Positions 10,302 to 62,410 of a DNA stretch of 64,000 nt are shown in pieces. The DNA lies in the NCBI RefSeq assembly GCF_000687475.1, contig NC_057321.1, positions 2,790,001-2,854,000 of the forward strand. Direction: 5' to 3'. The DNA comes from Ustilaginoidea virens (taxonomy: Eukaryota; Ascomycota; Sordariomycetes; Hypocreales; Clavicipitaceae). The notes under the pieces are model-generated. The model made no database searches. It saw only the letters and a list, made by a program, of their open reading frames with translations, and was not told where the DNA came from. Numbering within the stretch: position 1 is the stretch's first letter; each line of letters starts with the position of its first letter. The position numbers and the translations under genes are program-made.

Positions 10302-10315
10302 CCGGGCTTATAACC
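10302..10315 (-). promoter_or_regulatory. E5 primer-binding site
   Basis: Minus strand GGTTATAAGCCCGG directly after the LTR end. It is one transition away from the initiator-tRNA-Met complement GGTTATGAGCCC seen in E6 and E7. Confidence 0.8.
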
Positions 10316-11062: not shown

Positions 11063-11067
11063 GTTGT

Positions 11068-14371: not shown

Positions 14372-14407
14372 CCCCCTCTGATTAGCTACTGTAGTATCAA
14401 GCTAATC
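14372..14407 (-). promoter_or_regulatory. E6 polypurine tract and stem-loop
   Basis: Minus strand GATTAGC (14401-14407), a 14-nt loop, GCTAATC (14380-14386), then CAGAGGGGG next to the LTR. Stem and purine tract equal those of CopC; the loop differs in length and sequence. Confidence 0.78.
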
Positions 14408-18301: not shown

Positions 18302-18315
18302 CCGGGCTCATAACC
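18302..18315 (-). promoter_or_regulatory. E6 primer-binding site
   Basis: Minus strand GGTTATGAGCCCGG abutting the 5' LTR. It is an unmutated complement of the initiator tRNA-Met anticodon stem-loop (GGGCTCATAACC). Confidence 0.85.
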
Positions 18316-19035: not shown

Positions 19036-19040
19036 GCTCC

Positions 19041-20117: not shown

Positions 20118-20875
20118 TGTTGAAATCAGCGCCTTTTTAGCTGTATTTTGGTACTGGTCTCGCTACCGTACGACGTCTCTACGTTGAGATATCGCGGTGG
20201 CTATACCAGGCGCTATGGTGGGGCACAGCGCCCCACAACGCCGATTACAGTGGGCCACAGCGCCGGTCACGGCACCGGCACAGCGCCCCACAGCCGGCCA
20301 CAGCGGCCGGTCACAGCGGGCCACAGGGCCCACAACAGGCGGCGCATTTCTACGGGATTACCAAATGGGCAAACCTTGCTAATACCAGCACTTTCGGCCT
20401 TCTACATACAGTCACCCGCTACACCGCACCTTTACGGCACACCGATATAGGGCTTCCGGCCCGTACGGCAGACCGATATAGGGCTTCCGGCCCGTACGGC
20501 AGGCTGTTATAGGGCATCCGGCATACCGCTACAAGCCACTGGGCTTGGTTGGGTAGGCATTGGGTAGGATATTGGGCATAGACTGGGCACGGTTGGGCAG
20601 ACCGACTTTTCGTCGGTTTTTTTCGCTATTTTTGCGGTTTTTCATTATTTTCAACCACTTTTTCAAGATGGTAGAAATATACCCAAAATTCCCTCTTTCT
20701 AGCTAAAATAGTCACCAACAATTAGAATCAGATTTCCCTAACATCTTTACTCTAGTCAACCCCGTGTGTGCGTTTTTAATCTTTAACTAGCTTGTTTTAT
20801 TCTGCAACGCCTTGTATGCCACTGTCGGTACTTAGTATACTTTCTAATAGTTTTCTAAGTCACTATTTTGCAATA
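20118..20875 (+). repeat. E7 5' LTR
   Basis: TGTTGAAATCAGC start, CAATA end. Subtype with an extra CTTGCTAATACC-like insert before the AGCACTTTCGG motif and two full copies of the GGGCTTCCGGCCCGTACGGC unit, making it longer than the E5 and E11 LTRs. Confidence 0.94.
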
Positions 20876-20889
20876 GGTTATGAGCCCGG
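20876..20889 (+). promoter_or_regulatory. E7 primer-binding site
   Basis: GGTTATGAGCCCGG immediately downstream of the LTR, complementary to the initiator tRNA-Met anticodon arm. Confidence 0.85.
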
Positions 20890-21174
20890 TGTCTTAAGGC
20901 TTCCAGCTTAAGACTTTTTTATGCTAACTTAGGATTTTAACGCATTTGGCAGCTAACCTTCTAGAAATCTAACTAACGATATTACTAATCTGCAGTAAGG
21001 GACTGATTATCTCAGATTTAGGAACCTAGCTACCACACTAAGCTGCAACACATCCTTGCAATAGGATTTTCTAAGGTTATTCCTTAACGCAGCTTTCTTC
21101 TAGTTTTATCTAGATTTTCTATCTTAATTTTCTTTGTATTTTTAAGACATTCTAGCACCTTTTCTCTTCCTACA

Positions 21175-24100: not shown

Positions 24101-26934
24101 ACATCCTATATCGCCGGGTCGTCACTAAGACCTCTTTTATTACTTTCACCTACTAAAATGAAGGTATAGGCCCTATTTTAAGTGGCCTAGAGGGTACTTT
24201 TGATTTCCAACCGCCTTCTAATTTAGAGGGGGTAAATATCGACTAAATTGCTCTAGAAGAGCCTATTTAGAAGTCGCCTCGCCTAAATATGCCTATTTTA
24301 GGCTTAGCCGAGGGCATAGGCCTACTATAGGCCTTGGATCTTATACAGCCTACGGGCCTACTATAACCAATGGGCCTAATATAGCACACGGATCCACCAC
24401 AACTAGTGGGCCTACCACTAATTGGCCCGCTACAGCACTCTGCAATATTTCTTAGCAATTCGCCGTCTTTTGATTCTAAATCGCTTCAGCCTAACTCAGC
24501 TTTTTAGCTTAGGTAAAACGGTCCTTTTTCACCGGCTAAGGAAAATACAGCCTTTTCCTATATAAAAAGGCTGCAAATGCTAGGAAATGCAGAAAGCTCT
24601 CATCACCAGGAATCTCAACTACCGAGATTTTCCGAATCCGTCATAAAAGTGGGTATACCCCGCATATATGAAAATTCTAACTCGCCCCATATAGCAAATT
24701 TTTAATGGTCCGAATCTCAAAGTCCTACGCACACTAATTTTCTGCGACTTTCCGATATAATAGATTCTGCCTTTTCGCCCGGCTTCCTAGTAAATATAGT
24801 ATTTTACTATAGTAAAACGCTACTTACACTAGAATATCTAAAATTCGAGAGTCTAAATATCGCCTCAAATAAGAGACCGTAGGAGAAAATATTTTGAGTA
24901 TTAGAAAAGGTGCCTATTCAGCCATACTAGGTTAGGGCTATTAGGGGTAGAATTTAAGGAAGAATATAGCCACAGATACGAGACGTGCAAGGTATCCTAA
25001 ATTACGGATACCATAGGTCACTTTCTGGCCCATAAGCGGACCAATAGGGTTTTTTCCCACCCATACAACCGGAAAACAACGGCATTTTTCCACCCACCCA
25101 GCCGGAAAATAACAGCATTTTCGGGTTCCTACCCACCTAGCCGAAAAACAATAGAATTTTTAGATACCTAGGCAGCCCCCTAGAGGCTCCCATATAAGAT
25201 TTCCCCCCTTCCTATGCTTTCTACCAGCAAATATACGATATATACTATACAGCTAAAATTAAGGCTGCAAAACGGGCCCCAAAAGGTATGCCTAATAGCT
25301 GGAAGGAAGTCTTATATAACCCACATAAGGATAGCTAGGTTAAGGCCTTATTTTCGGAATTCGAGCAATTAATCGACTTAAATATCTTCCAATTTATACC
25401 AAAGGCTAGTATTCCTACTAGTAGGAAGATATTACGTAACTGGCTTATTTTTCGTATAAAAAAAGATGCGAATAATAACCCGGTTAAATATAAAGCACGA
25501 TTAGTTATTAAAGGCTTTATGTAGGTATCTAGGCAAGACTTTACGGAGACCTATGCCTCTACTTCGATCCCACTAATATAGAGGATTATCCTTGCTCTTG
25601 CTGCTGTAAATAACTAGGAAATAGAGTAAATCGACTTTATTGGTGCCTTTCTAAATAGTGAACTACTAGAGACGATTTATATAGAGATTCCAGCTGGTTT
25701 TTTAGAATTTACAGAAAGCCTACTCTTACCTAACCCAGCCTTATAGTCTGACCAGTAGCGTCGTCGACTTCTAGCCTTGCTTACTAAGGTTGGATATGAC
25801 CCCTCTGCATTATAGGTCATACTATTAAAGAAAGCCTTATATGGGCTAAAATAAGGCCCTCGCGAGTGGTAATTACGGTTAAAAGACCTTCTAGTGCAAG
25901 AGGGTTTTAAGCCATTACTTTCTGATGCTGCTATCTTCTATAATAAAGGAATGCATACCTTTATTATAACCTATATAGATGACTGCTTAATTATTGGTCC
26001 GGATTTAAGCTATATTAACTAGCTTAAGACTAAGTTCCATAAGGTTTATACTATAGAAGACCGAGGACCTGCCTCCTTCTTTCTAAGAGTGCAGATTATT
26101 AAGGATAGAGAAAAGGGCCTATTATAGCTGCACTAATCGCAATTTATTACGGAAGTCCTTAAGAAATTCAACCTTAAAGACGCACGACCGTATTTAATTC
26201 TGCTATAGCCCGGTATACTTGCTGAGGCTAATAACGATACGCCGCTGGATACTAGTAATCAATACTTATTCTAGCAGCTAGTAGGGATATCGATGTGGTT
26301 AATGATGATGTTAAGACCTGACCTTGCCTTTCTAACGCAATACCTGTCACGATATATGCAACAGGCTTCCACTATACAGCTTAATGCTGCTAAAGGCGCT
26401 TTTCGCTATTTAGCTAGTACGGCAAATACAGCCATTTATTACCGAGCCGCTAAAGCTACCGTAGTATTAGCTGCATTTTCTGACAGTGATTTTGCTAGGT
26501 GCCGGCTTACTTCTAAGTCCACTAGTGGTTATCTTACTACCTTAAATAGTGGACCTATTAGCTAGAAGTCAAAATGGTCTTCGATTGTGGTTTTATTAAC
26601 GCTTGAAGCCGAGTCTAATGCAATGCTTAAGGCGCTTCGCGAAGTGGAGTGGATATCTAATTTATTTAAAAAAATCCAGGTCGATATTCAACGCCCTATA
26701 CCACTATATTGCGATAACTAAGGGTCTATTTTCAATGCAAATGACCCAAATCAGTATGCCCGCACTAAGCATACCTTGCTTAAATTCCGGTATATACGTA
26801 AGAAGGCCCACGCTGGCCTGGTAAAAATATCTTATTTACCTACGATAGATATGCCTGCGGATGGACTCACTAAACCACTTCCAAGCCCGAAATTCCCCAT
26901 CTTTCGGCAGCTATTAGGGCTGCAATCCCTATAG
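21175..26934 (+). pseudogene. E7 gag-pol polyprotein, RIP-degraded
   Basis: One frame of 1920 codons from ATG 21175 (MASQNVPANN) to TAG 26932-26934, with dozens of TAA/TAG at Gln or Trp positions and no net frameshift. Order: gag with the conserved IKELAKTANRF motif; Ser/Asn/Lys-rich tail; protease whose DTG has become NTS through two G-to-A changes (LLYNTSFTVYI); GAG-pre-integrase; integrase with KCIRLLNF, DRKSRF and the later LPFEELKK C-terminal part; a Leu/Pro/Gly linker; RT with YIDD (in the piece VTYIDDC or ITYIDDC); RNase H with SDSDFA; and the family's PLPSPKF tail. It is the reference copy for the CopC start codon, because E5 and E11 have ATA there. Confidence 0.94.
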
Positions 26935-26993
26935 CATCATCTTTTTTTTCTGATTTTTTTTTATAGGGTTTCTTTCTTTTATTCTAACGCTAG

Positions 26994-27021
26994 GATTAGC
27001 CATATTGCTAATCAGAGGGGG
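26994..27021 (+). promoter_or_regulatory. E7 stem-loop and polypurine tract
   Basis: GATTAGC (26994-27000), loop CATATT, GCTAATC (27007-27013), then AGAGGGGG up to the LTR start at 27022. Confidence 0.78.
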
Positions 27022-27779
27022 TGTTGAAATCAGCGCCTTTTTAGCTGTATTTTGGTACTGGTCTCGCTACCGTACGATGTCTCTACGTTGAGATATCGCG
27101 GTGGCTATACCAGGCGCTATGGTGGGGCACAGCGCCCCACAACGCCGATTACAGTAGGCCACAGCGCCGGTTACGGCACCGGCACAGCGCCCCACAGCCG
27201 GCCACAGCGGCCGGTTACAGCGGGCCACAGGGCCCACAACAAGCGGCGCATTTCTACGGGATTACCAAATAGGCAAACCTTGCTAATACCAGCACTTTCG
27301 GCCTTCTACATACAGTCACCCGCTACACCGCACCTTTACGGCACACCGATATAGGGCTTCCGGCCCGTACGACAGACCGATATAGGGCTTCCGGCCCGTA
27401 CGGCAGGCTGTTATAGGGCATCCGGCATACCGCTACAAGCCACTGGGCTTGGTTGGGTAGGCATTGGGTAGGATATTAGGCACAGACTGGGCACGGTTGG
27501 GCAGATCGACTTTTCGTCGGTTTTTTTCGCTATTTTTTCGGTTTTTCATTATTTTCAACCACTTTTTCAAGATGGTAGAAATATGCCCCAAATTCCCTCT
27601 TTCTAGCTAGAATAGTCACCAACAATTAGAATCAGATTTCCCTAACATCTTTGCTCTGGTCAACCCCGTGTGTGCGTTTTTAATCTTTAACCAGCTTGTT
27701 TTATTCTGCAACGCCTTGTACGCCACTATCGGTACTTAGTATACTTTCCAACAGTTTTCTGAGTCACCATTTTGCAACA
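27022..27779 (+). repeat. E7 3' LTR
   Basis: 758 bp, colinear with 20118-20875, ending CAACA. Differences between the pair are mostly transitions. Confidence 0.94.
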
Positions 27780-27784
27780 ATAAT

Positions 27785-37403: not shown

Positions 37404-38276
37404 GTTTTACTTCTTTATTTCACCCTATCTTTTGTATTCACCCTTTAGTCTCTCTTGCTTATTAGTACTACTAATATAGCTAAATCTTTCGGCACCTTTG
37501 GCTTACCCTTTAGTATCTCTACTTACCTATTATCACCTTCGGCTAATCCTTTAGTAATCTATAGCATTATCCTACGGTAATTAACGGTATAACCTTATAT
37601 CAACCTTTGGCATAACCTTACGGCAACCTATGGCGTAACCTTACGGCACCCTTGGAGTAATCTACGGCACCTACAGATTTTATAGTATAATATCTATTAT
37701 ACTATACCACTATATAATACCTTTGCACCTAGTGCATGATATTTACTGCACTTTACGGCACCTATTATATTATTTTATATATAATATTTATGGTATGGCA
37801 CTTACGGTACCCTTATATTACGGCACTTGCAGCAGTAATAATGATTATATCACATCACCTACGGCACTTACGGGATTTATTTCACGGAACCTACAGCACC
37901 TACGGCACTTACGGGATTTATTTCACGGCACTTACGGCACCTACGGCACTTACGGAATTTATTTCACGGCACCTACGGCACTTACGGGATTTATTTCACG
38001 GCACCTATGGCACCTACGGCACTTACGGGATTTATTTTATGGCACCTACGGCACCTACGGAACTTACGATATTTATATTACGGCACCTACGGCACCTGTG
38101 CTTTTATACTGAGACCTACCGCTATATACTGCGGTTATTTATTATAGTAGGCTACTAGTTACTATATATATTAGTTGTTTAATTAATTATTCAAACATTT
38201 TACTAGCTAGTAAGCTAGTTATTCCTCTGCTTTTACAACTATCGGTACTATTTTTCAACGACTTTTAACCACCGTA
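37404..38276 (+). other. E3 leader with expanded minisatellite
   Basis: Leader homologous to that of E6. Between about 37850 and 38095 the 9-bp unit (GGCACCTAC and GGCACTTAC) is built into a compound array with GGGATTTATTTCAC spacers. The frames of 129 and 140 codons that cross it are repeat artefacts without coding support. Confidence 0.75.
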
Positions 38277-46160: not shown

Positions 46161-47459
46161 AGAATGCACTATATATTCCTGCTCTAGATATTAACATCAT
46201 TAGTGGCGTAAAGCACTATGCAGCTAAAAGGGTATTAATTAAAAATCAGCTATAGTCAGCTAGCCGTAAATATATCGGCATTTTCAATTTCGAAAAATAC
46301 GGCTTTTTCCTTCCACAGAAAGGAATAAATACACTACTACTGCATCAACCTTGCAGTCATTATACTACTAATAGTATAGTAGTAGAAGTCCCCAGCCCTA
46401 TTAACCCTACTAATTATAGTGATCCTTTGGATACCACTATTACCCCCGTTCCAGCTATTGCGATTAGCAAAGAGCCCGCTATTATAAATAGTAAAGATCC
46501 CGTAGAGGTTACTAACCCTACCACGCCTATACAGACTAGTACTACCAGTTCTCCTGCCCCTATAACAACTGATATAGAATATCAGAAGTTATTACAATTA
46601 GCCGGCATTTGGCATATACGGCTAGGGCATATAGGTATTCAGCTACTTAAAAAGACCTATGCTAATACGCCTGGTCTGCCTAATCTCGATAAGGTTAAAG
46701 ATGCTAATTTTCGCTGCCTAGCCTATATGCAGGCCAAGAAGGTTAGACGACCTTCTAAGGATGCAATACCTAATCCAGCTAAATGCCTGGATATTATAAA
46801 AGGTAATACTTTTGCTATATCACCCACACCATATAATAAACGACCTATTGTTCTTATATTAGTGGATAGAAAATCCCGATTCTATTGGCTTTACTTACTG
46901 CCTAATAGGGAAGGCACCACAGTATTTACAGTATTACAGGGCTTTATATAAAGCCTGCAGGTCAGATATAGTAAAACCCTTATTAAGTTCCACTATAATA
47001 GTGGTAATGAAATTAATAAAATGCTTAACGATTGGCTTGCCCTATAAGGTATAAAGTTTGATACCTCCAGCCCTTATATACACGAATAAAACGGCCTAGC
47101 TGAACGTTCTATAAGGGCTATAGCTAATAGATTACGTGCCACTATGACCTGGTCAAAGTTGCCTTCTAACCTTTAGTCTGCCGTAATTACTAGTGTTATT
47201 ATACTGGTAAATATTACGGCAGTTACTAATAGACCTTCTAGCCCTTATTTAGAGCTATTAAAAGACTATGACTAAATAACCCCTGAGCACTATCCTAATC
47301 TTATTAACCTTAGGGCTATTGGAGCTACTATTAAGGTGCTTATACCATACGAAAAGCGTGTAAAAAGCCGCAAATTAGCGCCCCGAACCGAGCCTAGTAG
47401 GCTCCTTGCCACTCTAGGTAATAATACCTACCTAGTTTATTTTCTAAAAAAGAAGGTTA
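46161..47459 (+). pseudogene. E3 protease tail, GAG-pre-integrase and integrase, RIP-degraded
   Basis: Continues E3 from LKNALYIPALDINIISGVK in phase. A Ser/Thr/Pro repeat block with SKEP and SKDPVE units (46440-46560) precedes the GAG-pre-integrase (WHIRLGHIGIQLLKKTYANT, ending at about 46670) and the integrase (LVDRKSRFYWLYLLPN, then HYNSGNEI and LAERSIRAI). This is the segment missing from E6: E6 jumps from TYANT (46669) to the YLVY at about 47430. The frame is cut by E10 in KKKV and resumes at 62411. Confidence 0.92.
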
Positions 47460-47711
47460 TATAAAGGACTGGCCCTAGGGCTACTGCGAATAGGCGTCGA
47501 ATGAATATATTAAATAGACTAAGGAGGAAAGAGAGAGGACCCGAATAAGGGCCTCTCGATAGTCTATTTATCCCTATATAGTATAGGTCGGGGTCCTGGC
47601 GTAGTCCTATGACCCTATGCCGCTGACCCATCTAACCCTGCCTAGGCTAGGCATAGGCACAGCCCGAGTCCTAGCCATATTATGGCGCGGGCGTAGCCCG
47701 AGCCCGTAATA
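47460..47711 (-). repeat. E10 3' LTR
   Basis: 252 bp, plus-strand TATAAAGGACTGG...GTAATA. The partner starts TGTAAAGG, so the start has a G-to-A change. Confidence 0.92.
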
Positions 47712-48213
47712 TACCCCCCTCCTCCGCATTATAATCGGATTAATTATATCCTATAACCTACCCTTCTTCTATACAGACTAATAAGGTCGCCGGGATTTTT
47801 ATCGCAATATCCTTAAGTTATTAGAGCGATACGCATATATATAGATATTAGGTTCGGCTCGTATAATTAAAGGATTCGTAAAGTAGTCAACCTGGGTATA
47901 ATATAGTAGAAACATATAGAAGTCCGGCGTCGCATCGCCAGCTAAAGACTACCTATAGCAGCTAGAAGTATCGTGAAAAATTTTTCGCTAGCTATTAGTT
48001 AGAGATCCCCCTAGGCGAGGGTGTTTTTCCTATTGCGCCCATTCTTCCTATCTTTTTTTCTTCCCTCTTCCTTCCTATAGCCATTATAATTATCGTCGGC
48101 ATTATAACTATAAGTATTATCTTCCGCCTAGGATTAGAACGTTAGAGCTAATTCGTCGATAAAATTATATCCTATTCCTATTCTAGTAAGCCTATATATC
48201 GATTCTACCCCGA
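47712..48213 (+). other. E10 spacer upstream of the antisense frame, promoter-like
   Basis: Begins with the purine tract of the element (minus-strand GGGGGG). At 48043-48078 there is a pyrimidine-rich C/T tract on the plus strand, a feature common just upstream of transcription or translation starts in filamentous fungi. An ATAGCC following it could be a RIP-mutated ATGGCC, but its frame does not join the reading frame at 48214 without a shift. Confidence 0.35.
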
Positions 48214-49533
48214 TCCGACTTTATAGATTCTCTCGATTAACTATATTAAGACCTAATTATATCTAATCCGAACCCTAGTAGTAGCCCTACTATAGGCAGT
48301 ATTAATACCCCAGCGGATCTTAATATTATAGAAATCCCGCGACCTATAAGCAGACCGTCTTTAGCGCATCTTAACCTATTAGAGACCAAACCAAAGCCGC
48401 AATACACTATAAGCGATTACCTACTTAAAGGTAATTCATCTAATGAGGAGTATAAATACGCCCACGATAAAGAGTTCCTATGCAAGCGATATAATAAAAA
48501 AATGCAATTAATGAGGGTTTTCCCTATTTATAAGTAAAGAGGCAAAAGCAAGGGATATACTTACTGCTAGGGTGCATATAGCTTGTGTATATAGCTAGAC
48601 TTTAAGCTAGCTAGGAATCTAAAGCTCCGATAGATCTACTAAGCATAGGTAAAAGCCTATAAAGACAGGACTACTGTTATTAAGTATATATAACTAGTAA
48701 CGGAAACGATTAAGGCCTATGCCGCTATCCTTTCGCCCTCCTTCTAGGCCTTTAACAACTAATAGTATTATATAATAGCTGCCGACTAAATAACCCCTTA
48801 CGTCCTACATCTTGCCTTTAGGTCCTATAGTGCCGCTAGGGAAGAATCGGCCGGTATCTCCTAGGCTATAACTCCCTTCCGCTAATAGGCTAGATCGATT
48901 ATCAACCTAGCTCTTATATTAAGTATAATATAGGATACTTAGAGGGAGGCCTAAGAGTACTATTCTTATATAAAGCGGTTCCTATCGGCCCTTATATATC
49001 CCTATTTAAGACCCCTGCCGGCTCGCCTTATACTATTATACTATCCTAAAGGGCCGATTATATATAAGCAAAAAGTATAGGCTTATCTAGAAGCTTACGC
49101 ATAGTATCTGCAATTATCTTCGTAGCAACCGCCGCCGCTAACGCCGCTATCGCAGCCGCTGCTACAGTAGTCTCAGCCGCTGCTATAGTAGTCCTAGCCG
49201 TGCATTTTGTAGTATTCGGTTCGGGCCCTATTATAGCCCCCTCCTTATTCGGCCTATAGTATATCTCCTAGGATACTATCCTATCGTAGGCAGATAGGCA
49301 ATTATCCGTGTCTAAACTATTCGCTATATATACATCCGAACCCCTAGGGGTATTATCCTAAGGGCTATTTGTAGTAGCTATAGCCGCCGCCGGGTTATGC
49401 CGACCTATATAATACCGGGGAGGGCCTATATAGGGGCGAATAATATAGCTATAAAGCCGGAGAGGAGGAGGGGTAATACTAACCTAAGGGAGGGGCATAC
49501 TAGTATTATTATTATTATTTTTTTTTTGATTAA
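48214..49533 (+). pseudogene. E10 antisense ORF of unknown function, RIP-degraded
   Basis: A 440-codon frame on the plus strand, opposite to E10 gag-pol and lying between pol and the 3' LTR. In my reading its interruptions are only TAA/TAG, at positions where Gln or Trp is plausible, with no TGA. Readable parts: FIDSL near the start; a Ser/Pro/Asn-rich linker; KPQYTISDYLLKG; KYAHDKEFLCKRYNKKM (about 48455-48510); a helical middle section with RFLSALIYPYLRPLPARL (about 48980-49035); and from about 49119 a Pro/Gln/Tyr-rich low-complexity tail (QPPPLTPLSQPLL). It converges tail-to-tail with pol (pol ends at 49649). I recognise no family. It could be an antisense ORF of the kind reported in some plant Gypsy lineages, a captured host gene fragment, or chance. 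Confidence 0.45.
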
Positions 49534-49648
49534 AAGGGTATTTAGAATTTTTTTTTTTTTTTATAAGTAGGCGTTCAGGCATCGTTTATAGGTCGGATAG
49601 ACCCTATTTCGATAGCCTAATAGGCCTATTATATATACGAATATTACC

Positions 49649-50424
49649 CTATTTAGTTTTAAATGCCTTTTATACTACTAAATCTTTAAAGTTTTCTAAG
49701 GGTTCCTATATAGGTAAATCGTACCCTTTCTATTTAATTAGTATATTGCAGTTCCTACCCCGACCCTAAGTGTTTTTCGCCGCTAATATCGCCTCGACCT
49801 TATATTCTTTATATAGCTAATTAGAGTCTTATAGAAAAATAAGTAAGAGCCCTAGCCTAATATTAATTACGGTCTATATTAAAAGCGGATCGGAAGCGGC
49901 CTATTCGATAAGGTCGATATAAAAAACCGGGTAAATACCCTTAGGGATATTAAGCCAGACGGTAAGTAGGGATAGGATAGCAATAATAGTATATTTAGTA
50001 GAGACTTAGTCGAGCTTTTTATAAAAGCAGTTCGTCTTAATATTCTTTAGGCTAAGCTATATATAGTCTCTAACCTAGAAATGCTTTACTAAGCAATATA
50101 AATAGTTTATTGCGTCTTATTATTATTATTATGTAAAAGCAATAGTAGCTTAGGCTAACTCCTTTCCCTTTTAGAGGTTAACTAAGAAGAAAGCCGCCTA
50201 CCCTTTTAGTATTTTTAAGCTTAATATTACCTCTAGGGCTAGTATAATAATTAGTATATCGAACCTATTAAAAAGCCGGTTTGGGCTAAACCCTATTACT
50301 AATAATATCCAGTTATTTAGGGCGAGTTAATAAGCCGTAAGGTGCTTAGGCTAGTTGTATTAGTTAAAGGAGACTATAATATAGAGGATGGCCTAGACCT
50401 CTTAATTTATTTGTTCTATACTAC
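49649..50424 (-). pseudogene. E10 integrase C-terminus with chromodomain
   Basis: C-terminal end of pol, cut off from the rest by E11. Near 49780-49660 it reads CNILIK-stop-KGYDLPI-stop-EPLENFKDL, the same chromodomain signature as E8 with both Trp codons turned into TAG, then KAFKTK and TAG 49651-49649. The upstream part is the integrase tail, homologous to E8 around 32220-32800. Confidence 0.85.
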
Positions 50425-51140
50425 TGTTGAAATCAGCGCCTTTTTAGCTGTATTTTGGTACTGGTCTCGCCACCATACGACGTTTCTGCGTTGAGATATC
50501 GCGGTGGCTATACCAGGCGCTATGGTGGGGCACAGCGCCCCACAACGCCGATTACAGTGGGCCACAGCGCCGGTCACGGCACCGGTACAGCGACCCACAT
50601 CCGGCCACAGCGGCCGGTCACAGTGGGCCACAGGGCCCACAACAGGCGGCGCATTTCTACGGGATTACCAAATGGGCAAATCAGCACTTTCGGCCTTCTA
50701 CATACAGTCACCCGCTACACCGCGCCTTTACGGCACACCGGTATAGGGCTTCCGGCCCGTACGGCAGGCTGTTATAGGGCATCCGGCACACCGCTATAAG
50801 CCACTGGGCTTGGTTGGGTAGGCATTGGGTAGGATATTGGGCACAGACTGGGCACGGTTGGGCAGACCGACTTTTCGTCGGGTTTTTTCGCTATTTTTGC
50901 GGTTTTTCATTATTTTCAACTACTTTTTCAAGATGGTAGAAATATGCCTAAAATTCCCTCTTTCTAGCTAGAATAGTCACCAATAATTAGAATCAGATTT
51001 CCCTGACATCTTTACTCTAGTCAATCTCTTGTGCGCTTTAAATCTTTAACCAGCTCTTTATTTTATTCTGCAACGCCTTATACGCCACTGTCGGTATCTA
51101 GTATATTTCCAATAGTGTTCTAAATTACCATTTTGCAATA
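50425..51140 (+). repeat. E11 5' LTR
   Basis: CopC LTR, TGTTGAAATCAGC...TTTTGCAATA. Same subtype as E5 (CAAATCAGCACTTTC junction) but with one fewer GGGCTTCCGGCCCGTACGGC unit, which explains 716 rather than 747 bp. Confidence 0.94.
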
Positions 51141-51154
51141 GGTTATAAGCCCGG
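51141..51154 (+). promoter_or_regulatory. E11 primer-binding site, one RIP change
   Basis: GGTTATAAGCCCGG after the LTR, with G-to-A against the E7 site. Confidence 0.8.
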
Positions 51155-51442
51155 TGTCTTAAGGCTTCCAGCTTAAGACTTTTTTTTATGCTAACTTAGG
51201 ATTTTTAACGCATTTGGCAGCTAACCTCCCAGAAATCTAACTAATGATATTACTAATCTGCAGTAAGGGACTAATCATCCCAGATTTAGGAACCCAGCTA
51301 CCACACCAAGCTGCAACACATCCTTACAATAGGATTTTCTAAGGTTATTCCTTAACGCAGCTTTCTTCTAGTTTTATCTAGATTTTTAGTCTTGATTTTC
51401 TTCGCATTTTTAAGACTTTCCGGCACCTTTTCTCTTCCTATA

Positions 51443-54400
51443 ATAGCCAGTCAGAACGTTCCTACCGCCGATAACCCAAGCTATACAGCAAAAGTAGAAG
51501 AATCTGATAATAACTAGGAAATTGCCTAGCTCAGGGAAGACCAATAGGAAATAAGAAAAGAATTCAGTCATAAATTTAATTAAATAAACTCTAAAATCGA
51601 TTTTTTGGCTGATAAGGTAGGCACCTTAGTAGATAGACTAATCAAGCCTGCTGCTAGCCCACCATTATAGGATATAATGGATGTGGATACCTTCCAAACT
51701 CCTGTGGGTAAGGGAAATACCTCTCTACCTAAAGCCCAGTAATAACCCCTGCCGGTTCCATCCAGCATTAGCAGCCAAATCAGCGCTATAGCTATTAAGG
51801 AACTAGCCAAGACAGCCAACGGATTCCAGGAATCCCAAAAGCTAAAGGGGGCATCTAACTTCGACCAATAGAAACAGGCCCTTATAATTTAACTTAGGGC
51901 ACTTAATATCGCCAAATTTATTAAAGATCCTTCTATTGCCAGCAAATTTAACGACTCAGAGCAAGCACTTTTACTATTACTTATTAAGAATAGTTGCACA
52001 GAAAGACTAGCTGCCGCTATTAACTGGTGTACTAACCTAGAGTCAGCCTTTACGTTACTCACCAAATAGTATTCTCACTCATCAGACGTACAGCAGACCC
52101 ACCTATACCCTGCCTTCCATCAACTAAATTTTATAGGCTATAAGGGTACCTTGGAATCTTTTAATGCCTCCTTTAATAGCTACCTATCTAGGCTGTAAAT
52201 TTTAGGCTCCTACATATAACCTTTCGACTAAATCAGCTAGTATTTATATGCTGTAGAAGGGGTCTTTTTTCAGTAGGCAGAATGGCACCGTACAATAATG
52301 AGAATCGCCTATACTTAGGGAAATACATTAAATATTAACCTGCAATTTTATATGGTTGATTTACTAGAAGAATAACGCATTAAAGGATCATCAGTAGTAA
52401 GGGCTACTATCTACCTTATAAAGGTTAAGGGTGCCGCTACTAACAACAATAGTAGTAAGCCAGCTAGTAATAATACTAGCAAAGGTGGTAAAAATACTAC
52501 CACTAATGCTAACAAAAAGAAATAAGGGTCTTCTTCTACCCAACAATAAGGGTCTTCTTTAGCCATATAAGGCAAGCCGGAAAATAAAAAGAAGAAGGAA
52601 AAGAAAGATTCAGCTAATAAAGTAGATACCCTATAAAAGACCGACGAAAAGACTATTAATTCCTTTATATTAGGGAATTATAATACTTTAAGTCTTATAC
52701 CCAATCAGACAGCCTATTCTTCCTTCTAGGACCGCGAATATATGCAATTTCTAGCTACTAGCTATAGTGTACAATCCGGTGGGAAAACGCCAACAGATTC
52801 CTTGCTCTACAATACTAGTTCTACGGTGCATATTATTAACGATAAAAAGTACTTTACCTACTTCCAATACTATACCGGAAATAGACTAGTTATTAGCATA
52901 GGTAGTGGCCTAATCAAGCCCAGTGGGTAGGGCATAGCGCGTTTTACCGTACTATAGGGCACTAACCTACCTTAGTGGGGCACCTTAGAGCTAACTAACG
53001 CCCTTTTTATACCAGCTTTTAATATTAACATCTTTAGCGGCGTTAAATACTATCTGAATCGTGGCAGTATTTAGGGCTAAAGCCTAGTTAATAGCAACAA
53101 TAAGTGTATTAGGCTTCTTAATTTTAAGAAGTATGGCTTCTTTTTATAATAAAAAGGGGTAGATTCGCCGTTTTTACACCATTCCAGCCAAAATCACCCG
53201 GCTTTATATAGTATCTCGGTCGAATTACCTGCCCTAGCCAACCTAAAAGAATATAAGGAATATCCCCTACTAAAGGATTTACCCACCCCACTAGCTGACT
53301 CGGACCTTCCACTTCCACTAGCTAATTCGTAAGCTAATCCACCAGTTAATTCGCAAGCTAACCCACCAGCTAACTTACCAGCTGACCCACCAGCTAGTCC
53401 TGGTTTTTCGGTGGTACCAACAAAGGCTGCTATTCCCAATATAGCCCAACTACTATAGAGGGTCCCGGTCACCCTCAACCCAGCCCTAGTCATAATACCA
53501 GCTGCTGATACAGAATATCAAAAGCTGCTATTATTAGCCGGACTTTAGTATATCCGGCTTAGGCACATTAAAATCCAACTTTTAAAGAAAACCTATGCAT
53601 TAACCATAGGGTTACCTAATCTCAGTAAGGTAAAGGATTCTGATTTTAACTGCATCGCCTATAAAAGGGCAAAATCAGTTCGGCGTTTTACATTAGGGGC
53701 TATACTAGACCCGATGCACTGTTTGGATATTATAGAGGGTAATATTTTCCAAATTAATCCTCTACCATATAACAAACGCCCCATTTGCCTCATCTTAATT
53801 GACCGGAAATCACACTTCCGTTAGGTATATTTACTACCTAATAAAGAAGGACCTACAGTATTCCCAATATTATAGGGGTTCTTCCAAGGTCTTAGGAATC
53901 GCTACGGCAAATCAGCTATTAAATTCCACTATAATAGTGGCAAGGAAATTAACGACGTTATTATAGCCTAGCTAGCTCTTAAGGGTATAGATTTTTTAAC
54001 CTCTTCCCCTTATATTCACGAGCAAAATAGGTTAGTAGAACGCTCTATACGGGTTATCGTTGACCGACTTAAAGCTATTATACTTTAGTCTCGGTTACCT
54101 TCTTACCTTTAGTTTACAGTGATTCTTAGTATTACTACCTTAGTAAATCTAATAGTAGTTATAAACCGTTCCTCGTTACCTTTCGAGGAATTAAAGAAGG
54201 ACTTTCTGGAAATTACGCACTACTACCTACCCGACCTTACTAGCTTTAGGGCTATTAGTGCGGCTGTAGAGGTGCTAATCCCTCTAGAAAAATAGGTCAT
54301 CAGCCACAAGCTGGCCCCCCGGACCGAGTCAGGTAGGTTACTAGCTACACTAGGTAATAGCACCTACCTCGTCTACATCCTATATCGCCGGGTCATCACT

Positions 54401-57220
54401 AAGACCTCTTTCATTACTTTCACCTACCAAAATAAAGGTATAGGCCCTATTTCAAGTGGCCTAGAGGGCAAATTCGACTTCCTACCGTTTTCCATTTTAG
54501 AGGGGGTAAACATCAACCAAATTGCTCTAGAAGAGCCTATTTAGAAGTCGCCTCGCCTAAATATACCTATTTCGTCTAAGACCGACGATATAAGCCTAGT
54601 CGAAGGCATAGGCCTACTACAGGCTATAGATCCAACACAGCCTATAGGCCCACTACAACTAATGGGCCTAATACAGTATACGGATCCACCACAATCAGCG
54701 GGCCTACCACAACCAATGGGCCTGCCACAACCAGTGGGCCTACCACCAATTGGCCCGCCATAGTACTCTATAATATTTCCTAGCAATTCGCCATCTTTCG
54801 ATTCTAAATCGCTTCAGCTTAACTCAGCTTTTCAGCTTAGGTAAGACGGTCCTTTTTTACCGGCTAAGGAAAATGCAGCCTTTTCCCATACAAAAAGGCT
54901 ATAAATGCTAGGAAATACAGAAAGCTCTTATCACCAGGAATCTCAATCACTAAGATTTTCTAAATCCGTCACAAAAGTGGGCATACCCCGCACATGTGAA
55001 AATTCTGACTCGCCCCATATAGTAAATTTTCAATGGTCTGAATCTCAAAGCCCCATATATACTAATTTTCTGCGACTTTCCAACATAATAGATTCTGCCT
55101 TTTCGCCCGGCTTCTTAGTAAATGCAGCATTTCGCTATAGTAAAACGCTGCCTATACTAGAATATCTGAAATTTAAGAGTCTAGATATCGCCTTAAATAA
55201 GAGACCGTAGGAGAAAATGTTTCGAGTATCAGAAAAGGTACCTATTCAGCCATACTAGGTTAGGGCTACTAGGGGTAGAATTCGAGGAAGAATGCAGCCA
55301 CGGATATAAGATATATAAGGTATCCTAGGTTATGGATACTATAGGTCACTTTTAGACCTACAGACTAACGACCAATAGTCTGACCAATAGTCTGACCTAT
55401 AGACTGACTAATAGGGTGCTTTCCCACCCACCCAGCCGAAAAACAACCAGATTTTTAGATACCTAGGCAGCCCCCCAGAGGCTTCCACATAGGATTTCCA
55501 CCCTTCCTATGCCTTTTACCAATAAATACACAATATCTGCTGCAAGGTAAAGGCTGCAAAACGGGCCCTAGAAGGTGTGCCTAATAGCTGGAAGGAAGTC
55601 TTATATAACCCACACAAAGATAGCTAGGTTAAGGCCTTATTTTCGGAATTCAAGCAATTAATCGATTTAAATATCTTTCAATTTATTCCTAAGACTAGTA
55701 TTCCTATTAGTAGGAAAATATTGCGTAACCGGCCTGTTTTTCGTGTTAAGAAAGATGCAAATAATAACCCGGTTAAATATAAGGCACGATTAATTGTCAA
55801 AGGCTTTATATAGGTATCTAGGTAAGACTTTACGGAGACCTATGCCTCTACTTCGATCCCACCAATATAGAGGATTATCCTTGCTCTTGCTGCTGCAAAT
55901 AACTGGGAAATAGAGCAAATCGACTTTATTAGTGCCATTCTAAATAGTAAACTACTAGAGACGATTTATATAGAGATTCTAGCTGGTTTTCTAGAATTTG
56001 CAGAAAGCCTACTCTTACCTAATCCAGCCTTATGGTCTGAACTGCAGCGTCAACGACTTCTAGCCTTACTTACTAAGGTTAGATATAACCCCTCTGCATC
56101 ACAGGTTATACTATTAAAGAAAGCCTTATATAGGCTAAAATAAGGCCCTCGCGAGTGGCAGTTACGGTTAAAAGACCTTCTAGTGCAAGAGGGTTTTAAG
56201 CCATTACTTTCTGATGCTGCCGTCTTCTATAATAAAGGAACGCATACCTTTATTGTGACCTATGTGGATAACTGCTTGATTATCGGTCCGGACCTTAGCT
56301 ATATTGACCAGCTTAAGGCCAAATTCCATAAGGTTTATACTATAGAAGACCGAGGACCTGCCTCCTTCTTTCTTAGAGTGCAGATTATTAGGGATAGAGA
56401 AAAGGGCCTATTATAGCTGCACCAATCGCAATTTATTGCGGAAGTCCTTAAGAAATTCAACCTTAAGGACGCACGACCGCATCTAATCCCGCTATAGCCC
56501 GGTATACTTACTGAGGCTAACGATACGCCGCTAGATGCTAGTAATCAATACATATTCCAGCAGCTAGTAGGGATATCGATATGGTTGATAATGATATTAA
56601 GACCTGACCTTGCCTTTCCAACGCAATACCTGTCACGATATATGCAATAGGCTTCCACTATACAGCTTAATGCTGCTAAGGGCGCTTTTCGCTACTTAGC
56701 TAGTATAGCAAATACAGCTATTTATTACCGAGCCGCTAAAGCTACCGTAGTATTAGCTGCATTTTCTAATAGCGATTTTACTGGATGCCGGCTGACTTCT
56801 AAGTCTACTAGTGGTTATCTTACTACCTTAAATGGTGGGCCTATTAGCTAGAGATTAAAACGGTCTTCGACTGTGGTTTTATTAACGCTTGAAGCCGAGT
56901 CTGATGCAATGCTTAAAGCGATTCGCGAAGTGGAGTGGATATCTAATTTATTTAAAGAAATCCAGGTCGATATTTAATGCCCGATACCATTATACTGCGA
57001 TAACCAAGGGTCTATTTCTAACGCAAATGACCCAAATCAGCATGCCCGCACTAAGCATACCTTGCTTAAATTCCGGTATATACGTGAGAAGGCCTACGGT
57101 GGCCTGGTAAAAATATCTTATTTACCCACGATAGATATGCCTGCGGATGGACTTACTAAACCACTCCTAAGCCCGAAATTTCCTATATTTCGGCAATTAT
57201 TAGGGCTGCAATCCCTATAA
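51443..57220 (+). pseudogene. E11 gag-pol polyprotein, RIP-degraded
   Basis: One frame of 1926 codons including the TAA stop at 57218-57220. The start codon position reads ATA (51443-51445). Same domain order as E7. The protease triad is NTS instead of DTG (LLYNTSSTVHI, about 52800). The linker between integrase and RT carries Ala-Asn-Pro-Pro and Gly-Pro-type repeats (about 53300-53400 and 54600-54760). The RT catalytic motif is YVDN instead of YVDD (in VTYVDNCLIIG, about 56260). RNase H has SNSDFTG in place of SDSDFAG. Sharing the same NTS protease damage as E7 suggests a common already-mutated ancestor or repeated RIP at the same sites. Confidence 0.94.
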
Positions 57221-57267
57221 TTTTTTCTTCTTTTTTATGGGACTTCTTTCTTTTATTCTAACGCTAG

Positions 57268-57295
57268 GATTAGCCATATTGCTAATCAGAGGGGG
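57268..57295 (+). promoter_or_regulatory. E11 stem-loop and polypurine tract
   Basis: GATTAGC (57268-57274), loop CATATT, GCTAATC (57281-57287), AGAGGGGG to the LTR start. Confidence 0.78.
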
Positions 57296-58011
57296 TGTTG
57301 AAATCAGCGCCTTTTTAGCTGTATTTTGGTACTGGTCTTGCCACTATACGACGTTTCTGCGTTGAGATATCGCGGTGGCTATACCAGGCGCTATGGTGGG
57401 GCACAGCGCCCCACAACGCCGATTACAGTGGGCCACAGCGCCGGTCACGGCACCGGTACAGCGACCCACATCCGGCCACAGCGGCCGGTCACAGTGGGCC
57501 ATAGGGCCCACAACAGGCGGCGTATTTCTACGGGATTACCAAATGGGCAAATCAGCACTTTCGGCCTTCTACATACAGTCACCCGCTACACCGCGCCTTT
57601 ACGGCACACCGGTATAGGGCTTCCGGCCCGTACGGCAGGCTGTTATAGGGCATCCGGCACACCGCTACAAGCCACTGGGCTTGGTTGGGTAGGCATTGGG
57701 TAGGATATTGGGCACAGACTGGGCACGGTTGGGCAGACCGACTTTTCGTCGGGTTTTTTCGCTATTTTTGCGGTTTTTCATTATTTTCAACCACTTTTTC
57801 AAGATGGTAGAAATATGCCCAAAATTCCCTCTTTCTAGCTAGAATAGTCACCAACAATTAGAATCAGATTTCCCTGACATCTTTGCTCTGGTCAATCTCT
57901 TGTGCGCTTTAAATCTTTAACCAGCTCTTTGTTTTATTCTGCAACGCCTTGTACGCCACTGTCGGTATCCAGTACATTTCCAACAGTGTTCTGAATCACC
58001 ATTTTGCAACA
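57296..58011 (+). repeat. E11 3' LTR
   Basis: 716 bp, colinear with 50425-51140, ending CAACA. Confidence 0.94.
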
Positions 58012-58016
58012 ACTAC

Positions 58017-61000
58017 TATTAGTTTAGGGGTAGTATACGGTCGAGAGGAGTTATTTAGTCTTAACTATCTTATAAAGTATAATCTAGAATTATCTTACTT
58101 AATTTAATCCCCTATCGCTAATAATCTTAATAGGGAATCTATAGAAGCGCTATTAGTATTATTAGAATCGTTCTATATACTCCTCGGCTATTATAGAATA
58201 TATCGCCTTTAGCTAGATATACTTCGATAAGCGGTCGGTAATTACTATAAGGAAATATAGGTTAGAGGAGTTATAGGTAGGGAGGTCTATTATAAAGTCT
58301 ATTAATATTTACGACTAGAAACGGTCTAGGATCGGTAAGGGCTATAGTAGACCCTATCGTAGTTAGCAGCTCTTATATACCCTATGGTATCGATAGTTCC
58401 AAATAAACCTTACTACTTTAGACGATATATTATCGAAATAATAATCCTATTGCAGCAATAAGAAGGTAGTATTCTTCCCTAGGTAACCCGCTATAGGCGA
58501 GTTATAGCACTATTAAATTACTATTATAGTTAAGGGCTCGAACGATAGGAACTATACCCGCCCCCGGTAAAGCAGTATACTATATGCATTTAGGGTATAA
58601 TTAGCAATTTATTCCTATATTACTGCCTCTATAGGGAATCATCGCTCTCTATTCGCTATTACCATCTATTACGCCCGGTATATATTATCTTTAGATATTA
58701 TTTAGTGCTAAAGAGCCTAAAGGTAGGTATCAGCGAAGATATATAAGCTATAAAGTAGGATAACCTCTAAATCTAAAGTTAGGGTCTTAATACCTTCTAT
58801 TCTATCCGTATCGAGTACTAAAATAGATAATAATTTTAAGATCTATCTAATTTACAGCTCTGCCCTATCTGCCTCTTATTTCTATCGAGAAAGCATATTA
58901 GGGCATTAGGCTTATAACCCTAGCCTATACTAGAGATAGAAGTTAAAAAGCATTAGAGTCTCGGCCTATTAGGCTTATCGCTTAGATATTTCTTATAGTC
59001 GGGCGAAGTACTTTAGGTTCTTATAGTTAGTAAGGATAATAAAAAGGGAGGCTACTAAATAAAGTTCTACTAACTATACCTTAAGGCAAAAGATAATAGT
59101 AAGGAGTTCCTTATTGTATATAATATAGTTCCATTCTGCATCTAATAAGTAAGCAGAATAGTATACGATAGGGTAAAGTATACTATCCTCCCCGATCTAT
59201 AATAGATAGCTATTAAGGGCTATACTAGAACTATCTGCCTTAAAGACTGTCTCTTTATTAGGGTCCTATTAGGCGAGAACCAGAGATAATATAAAATACT
59301 GCTTAAAGGCTTAGAATACCGCCTCTTCTTCGTCTAGCTATTAGAATAAGACCCTTTTCTTTATTAACCTAACTAAAGGGTCGATAAGGCGGGAAAAGTT
59401 TAAAATAAAATCGCAATAGAAATTAGTAAAACCGAGGAAATTATAAATACTTTTTAATTTCGTAGGTGCTTTTTAGTTCTAAATAGCCTTAATCTTTTTA
59501 GGGTCTAAATAGATTTCCTTTCTAGCTATTATGATATATCCTAGATATTAGACCTCCTTTACTATAAAGTCGCATTTATTAAGATCTAAATTTAAGCCGG
59601 CCTTTTATAATCATCGAAGGACTTCCTTAATATACCTTATATAGTCCGCTTTTAATCCCCTAATATAGATCAAAATATCGTTAAGGTAGGTAATTATAAA
59701 GTCTCCTAGTATATTCCTTAAGGCCCTATTAATATATCTTTAAAAGGTCGTAGGGGCCCTAGTTAGGCTAAATAGCATAATAAGCTATTTAAATAGTCTA
59801 AATTATATATAGAATGCGGGTAAATATTTATCGCCCTCTGCAATATATATCTTATAGAATGCTATATATATATCAACCTTAGTAAATTATTTTGCCTAGC
59901 ATAGGGATCGTAAGGTCTCTTTAATTAAAAAGAGGGGATATCGGTTTTAGACTATAACCTTATTAAGGGCCTAGTAGTTAATGCAAAAATACTACCCGCT
60001 ATTCCCCTTTCTAGCTAGTAGGACTAATACCGCTGCTAATAAAGAGCTTGCTTAAATCTATCCTTTATCTATTAGGTTAATTACTTATCTTAAAACCTTA
60101 AGTAATTAGTCTCGTAGTATATTATATAATAGGCCCTAAGGTAAGTCTAGCTGGCTCCCATCTATAGTTTTTTTAAGCCGGATATAGTAGTCTAATATAC
60201 CTTAGTGTAGAAGGAGATTAACAGCCTTCTTCTTATTAAAAAGGTCGGTAAATTCCTATAATTCTATTAAGAGTACCTATAGCTCTTGCGATTATAAGAT
60301 AGAGTCTTAATAAAGTGGTAATATAACGCAGAGGATATATATTATCTCCTATAAGCTTATTATAATAAAAGAAGTCGACCGGTCCCTAGAGTATTTCGCC
60401 TGCTTTAGTATACCGTAGAAGACTAAGCTAAAGATATTTACTATAGTTAGATCTTATTATCTTTTTATCGATTCTTTAACGATAAGGCTACCTATTAATC
60501 CAATCTTTAATTAGTGCCGCTTCGCCTATAGTATAATATTATAGTACTCTATCTAAAGCATTTTAAGGATAATATCGCAAGTAAGGCCCGGGATAATATA
60601 AAGTATAACTATAGACGGCTATCCATCGATATCGATCGCCATATAGATAATATAGGTAATAGAGGAATATATTACCTTATATTCTCCTAAACGGCTCTAA
60701 ATATTTACTACCGTTCTAATTTCCCTATATTATAGTAGATGGATAGGTTAGAGACCTAACCGTTATACTATCTTTTCGCTTATAGCGCTATAGCAGTTAT
60801 ATCCTAAGTCGATTAAGGTATTAATAAAAATATAGGATTTATATAAGATTAGTACTAAAAAGGGGTGTTTATCTATTTATTCTGCGATTTCCTTTAATTC
60901 TTTTTGCGATTAGGCTAGGGTCTATATATATATTTTAAGCCCTCTAATAAGACTAAATTTAAAGGCTATTCTTTTTCCTAATCTTTATTACTACTTTCGA

Positions 61001-61830
61001 CCTCTATAATTTATAAGTTAAGTAAGGCTACCTTAGTTATATTTGGTCGGATTGCCAGCAGTAGGTAATATATAAACATCTAATGCTTAGGAGAGCTATA
61101 CTAAAGATAGAGACCTTTTTTTCTATAATCTTTATATCGTTCTTTAGAGACCTATATCGCTTTAGGCATATACTAATTACCCTTCGAGTTTAGCTTATTA
61201 ACGCCTAATATTTATATATTGCCTTTAGAATCTTAGGCATAGGTTAGTCGGGAATAAGCCGAGCCCGGTTAGTAATTAATAGTTAGGCTAGTCTTGATAT
61301 CAATAGCAATTTATCGGTAGTAATCTACTGCTAAATAGTAATCGTAATAGGATACCCTAAGGCTAATAATCTTATTAGCTATATAAGCATTAAGTGCCAA
61401 TTAGAGATATTTTAGCTTAACTTCGTTAGGCTAACCGAGACTGCTGATAAGTATAAATTTTTCCTTAAATCGTATAAAAAAGGCGGCAAAAGATTCTTTA
61501 AGGCCCTAATATAAGGAATACTTAAGCTTAGTAATAGTGCGATCCTACCGGTATAGGTCCTTAAAGAGATATTAAAGGTATTCGAAGAACTTTATTATAT
61601 TATAATCGTAAGCTATACTATTCTTAAAGAAGGCTGCGACCTATAATTAGACTATAGACGATAGGTTCTAGAAGATAAATATCTATTAGGTCTTCTTATC
61701 TCTAATAAAATCCCTATCGACCTTAAGCTTATATTATATAAAGGTCCGCTAAGCTGTAAATATAGCCTTCTTACTATTAAAAGGGTCCCCTATTGGGATC
61801 GGCTTGCACTTTAGCTAGGTATTTTAAGCA
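58017..61830 (-). pseudogene. E10 Gypsy gag, protease, RT, RNase H and integrase core, RIP-degraded
   Basis: Read right to left. The gag segment KCKPIPIGDPFNSKKAIFTA (about 61820-61750) matches E8. RT is visible with YLND (59677-59688, first catalytic Asp to Asn) in GDFIITYLNDILIYI. RNase H follows, and the integrase core runs to 58017, where E11 interrupts. Almost every line carries TAA/TAG at Gln or Trp sites, and this copy looks more heavily mutated than E8. The gag/pol boundary is not resolved. Confidence 0.87.
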
Positions 61831-62153
61831 GTAGGGAGGGGGGTATTCTATTATATGACCGGCCCTAATTAGGTAGCATTTTAAGAGCTATTTGACTAGT
61901 TCGCAAAAAGGGTCTATAGTAAGGCGGCAATAGCAGTAAGGTGCTACGCATTAGTATGCATCTACGCCTCTATCTATTGTAACCCTATTGCAAGCTGCTC
62001 TACTCGGGTATATATATTATATCGGGGGCATTATAGCTTTAGATTCTCTCTATTTGGTTCTCTAGGTGTGCCTATCTCGATATCTTATATAGCCTATATT
62101 ATTAGCTCTATAATATAAGGTTATAATAGTAAGGCTAAGAGAGTCTATTTAAA

Positions 62154-62405
62154 TGTAAAGGACTAGCCCTAGGGCTACTGCGAATAGGCATCGAATGAAT
62201 ATATTAAATAGACTAAGGAGGAAAGAGAGAGGACCCGAATAGGGGCCTCTCGATAGTCTATTTATCCCTATATAGTATGGGTCGGGGTCCTAGTGTAGTC
62301 CCGTGACCCCGTGCCGCTGACCCATTTGACCCTGCCTAGGCTAGGCATAGGCGCAGCCCGAGTCCTAGCCACATTATGGCGCTGGCGTAGCCCGAGCCCG
62401 TGATA
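62154..62405 (-). repeat. E10 5' LTR
   Basis: 252 bp, TGTAAAGG...GTGATA, colinear with 47460-47711. Confidence 0.92.
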
Positions 62406-62410
62406 GGTTA

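What the first reader, a model, noticed from the sequence alone, without database searches (positions are those of the whole stretch)
48214..49533. Degenerate antisense reading frame between pol and the 3' LTR of Gypsy element E10
E10 has about 1.9 kb (47712-49648) between its chromodomain end and its LTR that the related E8 lacks. On the opposite strand this holds a 440-codon frame interrupted only by TAA/TAG, as RIP would leave in a once-open frame, and ending in a Pro/Gln-rich tail. It is preceded by a C/T-rich tract and converges with pol. Antisense ORFs in this position are known in some plant Gypsy lineages; I do not know of one in fungal chromoviruses. Its role is unknown.
Basis: partly seen in the sequence, partly recalled or inferred. 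Interest (0 to 1): 0.8.

Follow-up and report, generated by a model that had tools for sequence, protein, structure and literature searches.

The report
Swappable antisense gene in fungal retrotransposons
A jumping element in this fungus carries an extra protein gene written backwards next to its copying gene; the gene is now riddled with mutations, but comparison of copies shows that it once made a protein under selection and was swapped between related elements.

Summary
The frame is real, antisense and once protein-coding. A translated search listed 100 places in the genome (its cap), all with stops. Copies form three diverged versions, A, B and C. Counting only transversions, which RIP does not make, fixed differences pile up at third positions of this frame (A-C 57/72/126, p=3e-11; B-C p=2e-13), and most indels are multiples of three. 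A strand test validated on pol favours the antisense strand (ratio 2.29) over the mirrored sense frame (0.74), though A-B alone is uninformative.

126 of 126 diagnostic sites up to 49533 match version A; 56 of 56 from 49590 match version B's pol end. Near-identical pol ends carry very different antisense genes. Six conserved cysteine positions cluster in 36 residues, before a Pro/Gln/Tyr-rich tail.

The kind is known in fungi: Botrytis Boty elements carry an antisense gene, brtn (citing passages). Homology to BRTN could not be tested. The protein's role is inferred.

The parts
47460..62405 (-). Gypsy-type LTR element E10 (interrupted by another element at 50425-58012), with 5-bp target duplication GGTTA at 47455-47459 and 62406-62410
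   Evidence: LTR pair and nested insertion; ends and duplication read from sequence; pol on minus strand
47460..47711 (-). 3' LTR of E10
47712..47726 (-). polypurine tract next to the 3' LTR
   Evidence: sequence
47901..48060 (+). conserved non-coding block upstream of the antisense gene, taken as its promoter region
   Evidence: fixed transversions A-C 14 of 143 in the block against 53 of 239 in its flanks (Fisher p=0.002); B-C 16 of 146 against 46 of 218, p=0.015
47974..47987 (+). TGAAAAATTTTTCG motif, resembling the ribosomal-RNA-processing element of fungal promoters (name recalled)
   Evidence: pattern [AG]AAA[AT]TTTT in 35 of 36 aligned copies
48041..48077 (+). C/T-rich tract upstream of the frame
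   Evidence: sequence
48253..49515 (+). in-phase part of the antisense reading frame, common to the three versions
48481..48588 (+). cluster of six conserved cysteine positions (C-x2-C-x12-C-x8-C-x2-C-x6-C in one copy)
   Evidence: Cys/Tyr columns; clustering by chance 3e-5 in a simple after-the-fact simulation
49116..49515 (+). Pro/Gln/Tyr-rich tail with a 21-bp unit that varies in number between copies
49533..49590 (.). recombination breakpoint interval between the antisense gene and pol
49591..50424 (-). 3' end of pol, of the type carried by version B
58012..60300 (-). stretch of pol with reverse transcriptase, RNase H and a weak integrase zinc-binding domain

Best explanation
The segment is an antisense accessory gene of a Gypsy retrotransposon family. 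It converges on pol, probably has its own promoter next to the 3' LTR (conserved block with a TGAAAAATTTTTC motif and a C/T tract), and encoded a protein of about 420 residues: a variable start, a core with six clustered cysteines that would bind zinc, and a Pro/Gln/Tyr-rich low-complexity tail. Shown: coding history, strand, purifying selection on the core, three diverged versions, and exchange of the antisense gene between two types of pol end at one junction. Inferred: expression from its own promoter, zinc binding, and the role. I think the protein acted on nucleic acid in the nucleus as a regulator of the element's own expression or a shield against host silencing, and that exchange came from template switching during reverse transcription. 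Probabilities: antisense protein gene about 0.95; module exchange about 0.95; own promoter about 0.6; nucleic-acid-binding regulator about 0.35.
For: Third-position excess of fixed transversions in 48253-49515: A-B 17/19/51 of 388/391/374, A-C 57/72/126 of 381/388/364, B-C 59/59/130 of 368/374/363; the stretches on either side show no such excess. Indels within 48353-49374 are multiples of three (counting two gaps six bases apart, -23 and -10, as one), apart from a 1-base loss in one copy. All 36 aligned copies have 237 whole codons in the core. With the first two codon bases equal, third-base transversions are 2.29 times as frequent in fourfold as in split codon boxes on the antisense strand (95% 1.41-3.78, core, versions A+B against C), but 0.74 (0.49-1.08) in the mirrored sense frame. 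The same test on the pol end gives 2.86 in its true frame and 0.40 in the mirror between the two pol types, and 4.82 against 1.15 and 2.29 against 1.03 towards E8. Recombination: 126 of 126 diagnostic sites version A up to 49533, 56 of 56 version B from 49590. Seven version A copies and 19 version C copies differ in the pol end by 0.1-0.2% transversions at each codon position, but A and C differ in the antisense core by 36% (78 of 219) at third positions. Six Cys/Tyr columns lie in residues 77-112.
Against: No open copy among the 100 places listed out of 170 candidates. No relative in the protein search, Pfam (only single weak matches far below cut-off), solved structures or two contig collections; the queries are RIP-altered, and whether the protein database holds many fungi was not tested. 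No expression data. The strand test does not separate the strands for A-B (0.93 and 0.92), the least diverged pair, and stop counts do not single out the frame. The third-position signal is uneven: absent in 48253-48400 against C and weak in parts of the tail. Non-third to third ratio is about 0.23 for A-B, like the pol end (about 0.21), but 0.37-0.39 against C, so constraint may be looser than on pol. E8-type elements without the gene are abundant, so it is not needed for amplification in general. The cysteine spacing fits no family tested.
Confidence: 0.6

Rival explanations
1. The gene lies on the sense strand (an env-like third gene in the frame that shares the third codon position).
For: The mirrored frame shares the third-position signal by construction, and its conservation scores are second best in 3 of 3 comparisons. 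Stop counts do not exclude it.
Against: Fourfold-box test in the core 0.72-0.75 in the mirror against 2.05-2.54 on the antisense strand for A-C, B-C and A+B-C; A-B gives no answer. The method picks the right strand on pol. BLOSUM means are higher in the antisense frame in 3 of 3 comparisons, but by margins near their standard errors.
Confidence: 0.04
2. The product that matters is an antisense RNA (double-stranded RNA or small RNA regulator); the protein is secondary.
For: The gene converges on pol, so its transcript could pair with the gag-pol RNA. The review read in passages here raises this for plant antisense ORFs (PMC7264820).
Against: Codon-level constraint shows that a protein was selected; an RNA alone does not need it.
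Confidence: 0.15
3. It is a passenger: a host gene captured once and carried along without use to the element.
For: Absent from E8-type elements; no known domain.
Against: Purifying selection over the divergence of three versions; exchange between pol types; no intact host relative among the 100 listed places, though more distant ones could lie below that list.
Confidence: 0.05
4. It is a diverged member of the BRTN family of Boty elements, with whatever role BRTN has. (This can hold together with the best explanation.)
For: Same kind of element, host kingdom, position and orientation (passages).
Against: No BRTN sequence was in reach, so nothing was compared.
Confidence: 0.4

Closest known systems
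brtn, antisense gene of Boty-like retrotransposons (Zhao et al. 2011, Virology 417:248; seen only as cited in PMC8365987, PMC7264820 and PMC4227169)
   Same: Fungal LTR element with an extra antisense gene (title); PMC7264820 lists it, for Botrytis and Sclerotinia, among antisense ORFs between pol and the 3' LTR (passage).
   Different: Sequence relationship untested; module exchange and the cysteine cluster cannot be compared, as the paper was not held.
Antisense additional ORFs of plant Gypsy elements (maize Grande gene23, rice RIRE2, Silene Retand / TRP28)
   Same: Position, orientation, conservation across copies; own upstream promoter in Grande; nuclear location or predicted DNA binding in some (PMC7264820 and PMC11963269, passages).
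   Different: No Pfam match to PF04195; different host kingdom.
HTLV antisense proteins
   Same: Antisense accessory protein of a retroelement (passages).
   Different: No sequence comparison made; different host.
Zn(II)2Cys6 fungal transcription factors
   Same: Six cysteines ending C-x2-C-x6-C, with basic residues between.
   Different: First loop is 12 residues, not 6 (rule recalled); no Pfam match.

Membership tests
Antisense additional ORF between pol and 3' LTR (aORF-3R) | Lies between pol and the 3' LTR, antisense to pol | tested here: met
   pol on minus strand, purine tract at the left LTR, frame on plus strand
Antisense additional ORF between pol and 3' LTR (aORF-3R) | Present in many copies and conserved as a protein | tested here: met
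Antisense additional ORF between pol and 3' LTR (aORF-3R) | Antisense transcription from its own promoter | tested here: inconclusive
   conserved upstream block only; no RNA data
BRTN of Boty elements | Protein sequence similarity to BRTN | not testable with these tools
   no BRTN sequence in reach; paper not held
Zn(II)2Cys6 cluster | C-x2-C-x6-C-x5-12-C-x2-C-x6-8-C (recalled) | tested here: not met
   first loop x12; no Pfam match
Plant Retand TRP28 (PF04195) | TRP28 domain | tested here: not met
   not among the Pfam matches of the 13 and 14 aligned copies, which share six copies
Chromovirus | Chromodomain at the end of pol | tested here: inconclusive
   no Pfam match in RIP-altered pol-end pieces
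Ty3/Gypsy LTR retrotransposon | LTRs, target duplication, polypurine tract, RT-RNase H-integrase order | tested here: met
   integrase zinc domain weak (E=0.02) and on the 3' side of RNase H; no gag match

The most novel reading that the evidence does not exclude
The antisense gene is an exchangeable cassette: near-identical pol ends took up strongly diverged antisense genes at one short junction, as expected if the protein evolves in conflict with host silencing or with sister elements (self-recognition or copy-number control) and swapping it lets an element escape. The protein would be an unrecognised family of zinc-cluster accessory factors in fungal retrotransposons.
Probability: 0.25. Interest if true: 0.85.

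Novelty: new variant of a known kind. Interest (0 to 1): 0.6.

Why it matters
Antisense genes in LTR retrotransposons are described in plants, retroviruses and one fungal group, and the passages read here say that the role of those in retrotransposons is not known. This genome offers three diverged versions of one such gene on two types of pol end, with transversion-only evidence that survives RIP, so selection, strand and exchange can be read from dead copies. If the swapping is adaptive, these elements are a natural test of whether antisense proteins serve counter-defence or self-recognition. It also shows that stop codons alone neither support nor reject a gene in RIP-altered DNA.

Tried and rejected
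Chance frame: rejected by the third-position transversion excess and in-frame indels. Stop-codon type as evidence for the frame: rejected, all frames alike; universal stops and regression on RIP level did not separate the frames either. Sense-strand gene: rejected by the fourfold-box test, after BLOSUM comparison alone proved too weak. A first fourfold test that took the codon box from one copy gave weaker results (A-C p=0.006 and 0.03, B-C p=0.03 twice, A-B none, mirror none). Lone insertion: rejected, same site in three versions. Faster evolution of the antisense gene instead of recombination: rejected because E10 groups with A on one side of 49533-49590 and with B on the other.

Led nowhere: three protein searches, Pfam, solved structures, contig scans, chromodomain and gag, papers. 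The star alignment is noisy where copies are cut short (values near 0.25 are misalignment); I used it as a lead for and for the per-copy pol type. It puts E10's LTR nearer to B (0.019) than to A (0.071), while the one diagnostic LTR site is of the A class; so where the exchanged stretch ends on the LTR side is open.

Copies used and left out. Of the 30 loci, I count 15 as version A (L001-L014, L022) and 15 as version B (L015-L021, L023-L030); 20 version C loci came. One search used 9 A and 11 B, searches used 8 A, 8 B and all 20 C, one search used E10, 4 other A, 9 B and 6 C; the rest were left out because they are cut short, interrupted or shifted. One search grouped E10 and L013 with version A; one search regrouped them by pol type.

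Full report
What is there. The window lies in contig 6 of a 37.16-Mb assembly in 8 contigs. E10 is an LTR element read on the minus strand: LTRs at 47459-47711 and 62153-62405 (93% alike), GGTTA repeated outside both ends, a minus-strand purine tract beside the left LTR (sequence), and reverse transcriptase (E=7e-19), RNase H (4.5e-9) and a weak integrase zinc-binding match (0.02) on the minus strand. No gag match was found. A 7.6-kb element of another family (50425-58012) is inserted in it. Between the end of pol and the left, 3', LTR lies a stretch of about 1.9 kb, and the reported frame is on the plus strand within it. E8 lacks this stretch. Of 41 E8-type matches listed, all begin at the LTR edge and 36 span all 1549 query bases or all but one.

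The frame has 37 stops, all TAA or TAG. But RIP removes TpG and hence TGA (recalled). In the window copy all six frames have 28-39 stops with 0 or 1 TGA. The cue therefore says nothing by itself, and only comparison of copies can decide.

Copies. A DNA search gave 58 matches, with 40 of 64 candidates scored. A translated search with one copy gave 100 listed places out of 170 candidates, the number it scored; all 100 carry stops. Clustering the core of 36 aligned copies by transversions gives three groups: A (8 copies, with E10), B (8) and C (20). In the translated search, longer matches that I take as B are about 48-57% and as C about 38-45% identical to the A copy used as query. No second match to the protein was found in the window itself.

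Coding test. RIP makes only transitions, so I counted transversions. Between versions, fixed transversions in 48253-49515 fall by codon position as 17/19/51 (A-B), 57/72/126 (A-C) and 59/59/130 (B-C) out of 363-391 columns each, with p of 1e-7, 3e-11 and 2e-13 for third against other positions; the stretches on either side show no such excess. A separate A-B alignment gave 19/23/54 of 430 each. Indels between 48353 and 49374 are multiples of three (+9, -33 in two gaps six bases apart, +9, +24, 21-bp units), except a 1-base loss in one copy (L020). Towards the end three copies have lone 1- or 2-base changes, and lengths vary in the T tract. At the start, 11 of 11 version B copies have -2 and +1, so coding begins after about 48251. 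In 16 of 20 copies the whole stretch keeps a length divisible by three; one of the four others is cut short by the alignment. All 36 copies have 237 whole codons in the core. The signal is not even: 48253-48400 shows none against C, and parts of the tail are weak, so the start evolved fast or is not all coding.

Which strand. A sense frame that shares the third position would show the same signal. Among codon pairs with equal first two bases, third-base transversions should be commoner in fourfold boxes on the true strand only. In the core, the ratio of fourfold to split boxes is 2.54 (1.57-4.31) for A-C and 2.05 (1.21-3.40) for B-C on the antisense strand, against 0.72 (0.45-1.16) and 0.75 (0.46-1.16) in the mirror; A-B, with few changes, gives 0.93 and 0.92. 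On the pol end the test gives 2.86 (1.24-7.16) in the true frame and 0.40 in the mirror between the two pol types, and the same order towards E8. The core's non-third to third ratio is about 0.23 for A-B, close to the pol end's 0.21, but 0.37-0.39 against C (from; the first counts fixed differences, the second mean pairwise ones). So the protein was under purifying selection, perhaps looser than pol over the longer distance.

Module exchange. Only the last 0.5-0.6 kb of pol was compared. There E10 and L013 are close to version B, while seven version A copies (L002, L003, L007-L011) are close to version C; the other version A copies could not be scored there. Ten version B copies have the B type and 19 of 20 version C copies the C type (noisy; pattern also). 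On one alignment, 126 of 126 sites that separate A from B carry the A class in E10 up to 49533, and 56 of 56 from 49590 carry the B class. For sites that separate B from C, version A is mostly B-like up to 49529 (263 of 316) and C-like at 49 of 49 from 49590. Seven version A and 19 version C copies differ in the pol end by 0.1-0.2% transversions per codon position, but A and C differ by 36% at third positions of the antisense core (78 of 219). At least two exchanges are needed: one for version A on two pol types, one for A and C on the same type. Both map to the same interval of at most 61 bp, the T-rich spacer between the two convergent genes. Where the exchanged stretch ends on the LTR side is open (disagree). 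Template switching between co-packaged RNAs is the likely route (inference). The copies with version A lie on several contigs, which speaks against one assembly error.

The protein. In 33 aligned copies, columns that hold at least 90% Cys or Tyr, as TGY to TAY changes would leave, lie at residues 77, 80, 93, 102, 105 and 112 of one copy, with Cys seen in all three versions at five of them and in two versions at residue 80; one further column, residue 67, has Cys only in two C copies and His in A and B. Six columns within 36 of about 375 residues is unlikely by chance (3e-5 in a simple simulation made after the fact). The spacing C-x2-C-x12-C-x8-C-x2-C-x6-C resembles but does not meet the Zn2Cys6 rule (recalled), and Pfam gives no match above cut-off. 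The tail is 17-20% Pro and 11-12% Tyr in the two copies counted. Zinc and nucleic-acid binding are inferences.

Upstream. The block 47901-48060 is better conserved than its flanks (14 of 143 against 53 of 239 fixed transversions A-C, p=0.002; B-C 16 of 146 against 46 of 218, p=0.015). It holds the pattern [AG]AAA[AT]TTTT in 35 of 36 copies, followed by the C/T-rich tract. TGAAAAATTTTTC resembles the ribosomal-RNA-processing element of fungi (recalled). A promoter for the antisense gene is the natural reading, but a role for the element's own RNA on the other strand is not excluded.

What is known. Antisense ORFs between pol and the 3' LTR are described in plants (PMC7264820 and PMC11963269, abstracts and passages). 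In fungi, Zhao et al. 2011 reported the antisense gene brtn in Boty-like elements of Botrytis; I saw only its title and citing passages, and the paper is not held. The kind is therefore known in fungi. Whether this protein is a BRTN relative is open. The listings showed no report that I recognised, by title and start of abstract, of exchange of such a gene between pol types in fungi; most listed papers were not opened, and subscription journals are mostly not held.

Noticed in passing
window 13650-14377 and 18314-19041: A 728-bp direct repeat pair 99.7% identical, 4.7 kb apart start to start, more alike than E10's LTR pair (93%) and the pairs of the 7.6-kb family (about 97%); it may be the youngest LTR pair of the window.
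   Followed up: no
window 3479-11065, 20118-27780, 50425-58012: Three copies of one 7.6-kb LTR element family (87-92% alike), one of them inserted in E10 and one inverted to the other two.
   Followed up: no
window 38000-38097: Short GGCACCTAYGG-type tandem units.
   Followed up: no
L013 (G000:C5:1522562-1526518): A second, partial copy with a version A antisense gene on the version B type of pol end, like E10.
   Followed up: partly
window 49116-49320: A 21-bp in-frame unit in the tail varies in number between copies.
   Followed up: partly
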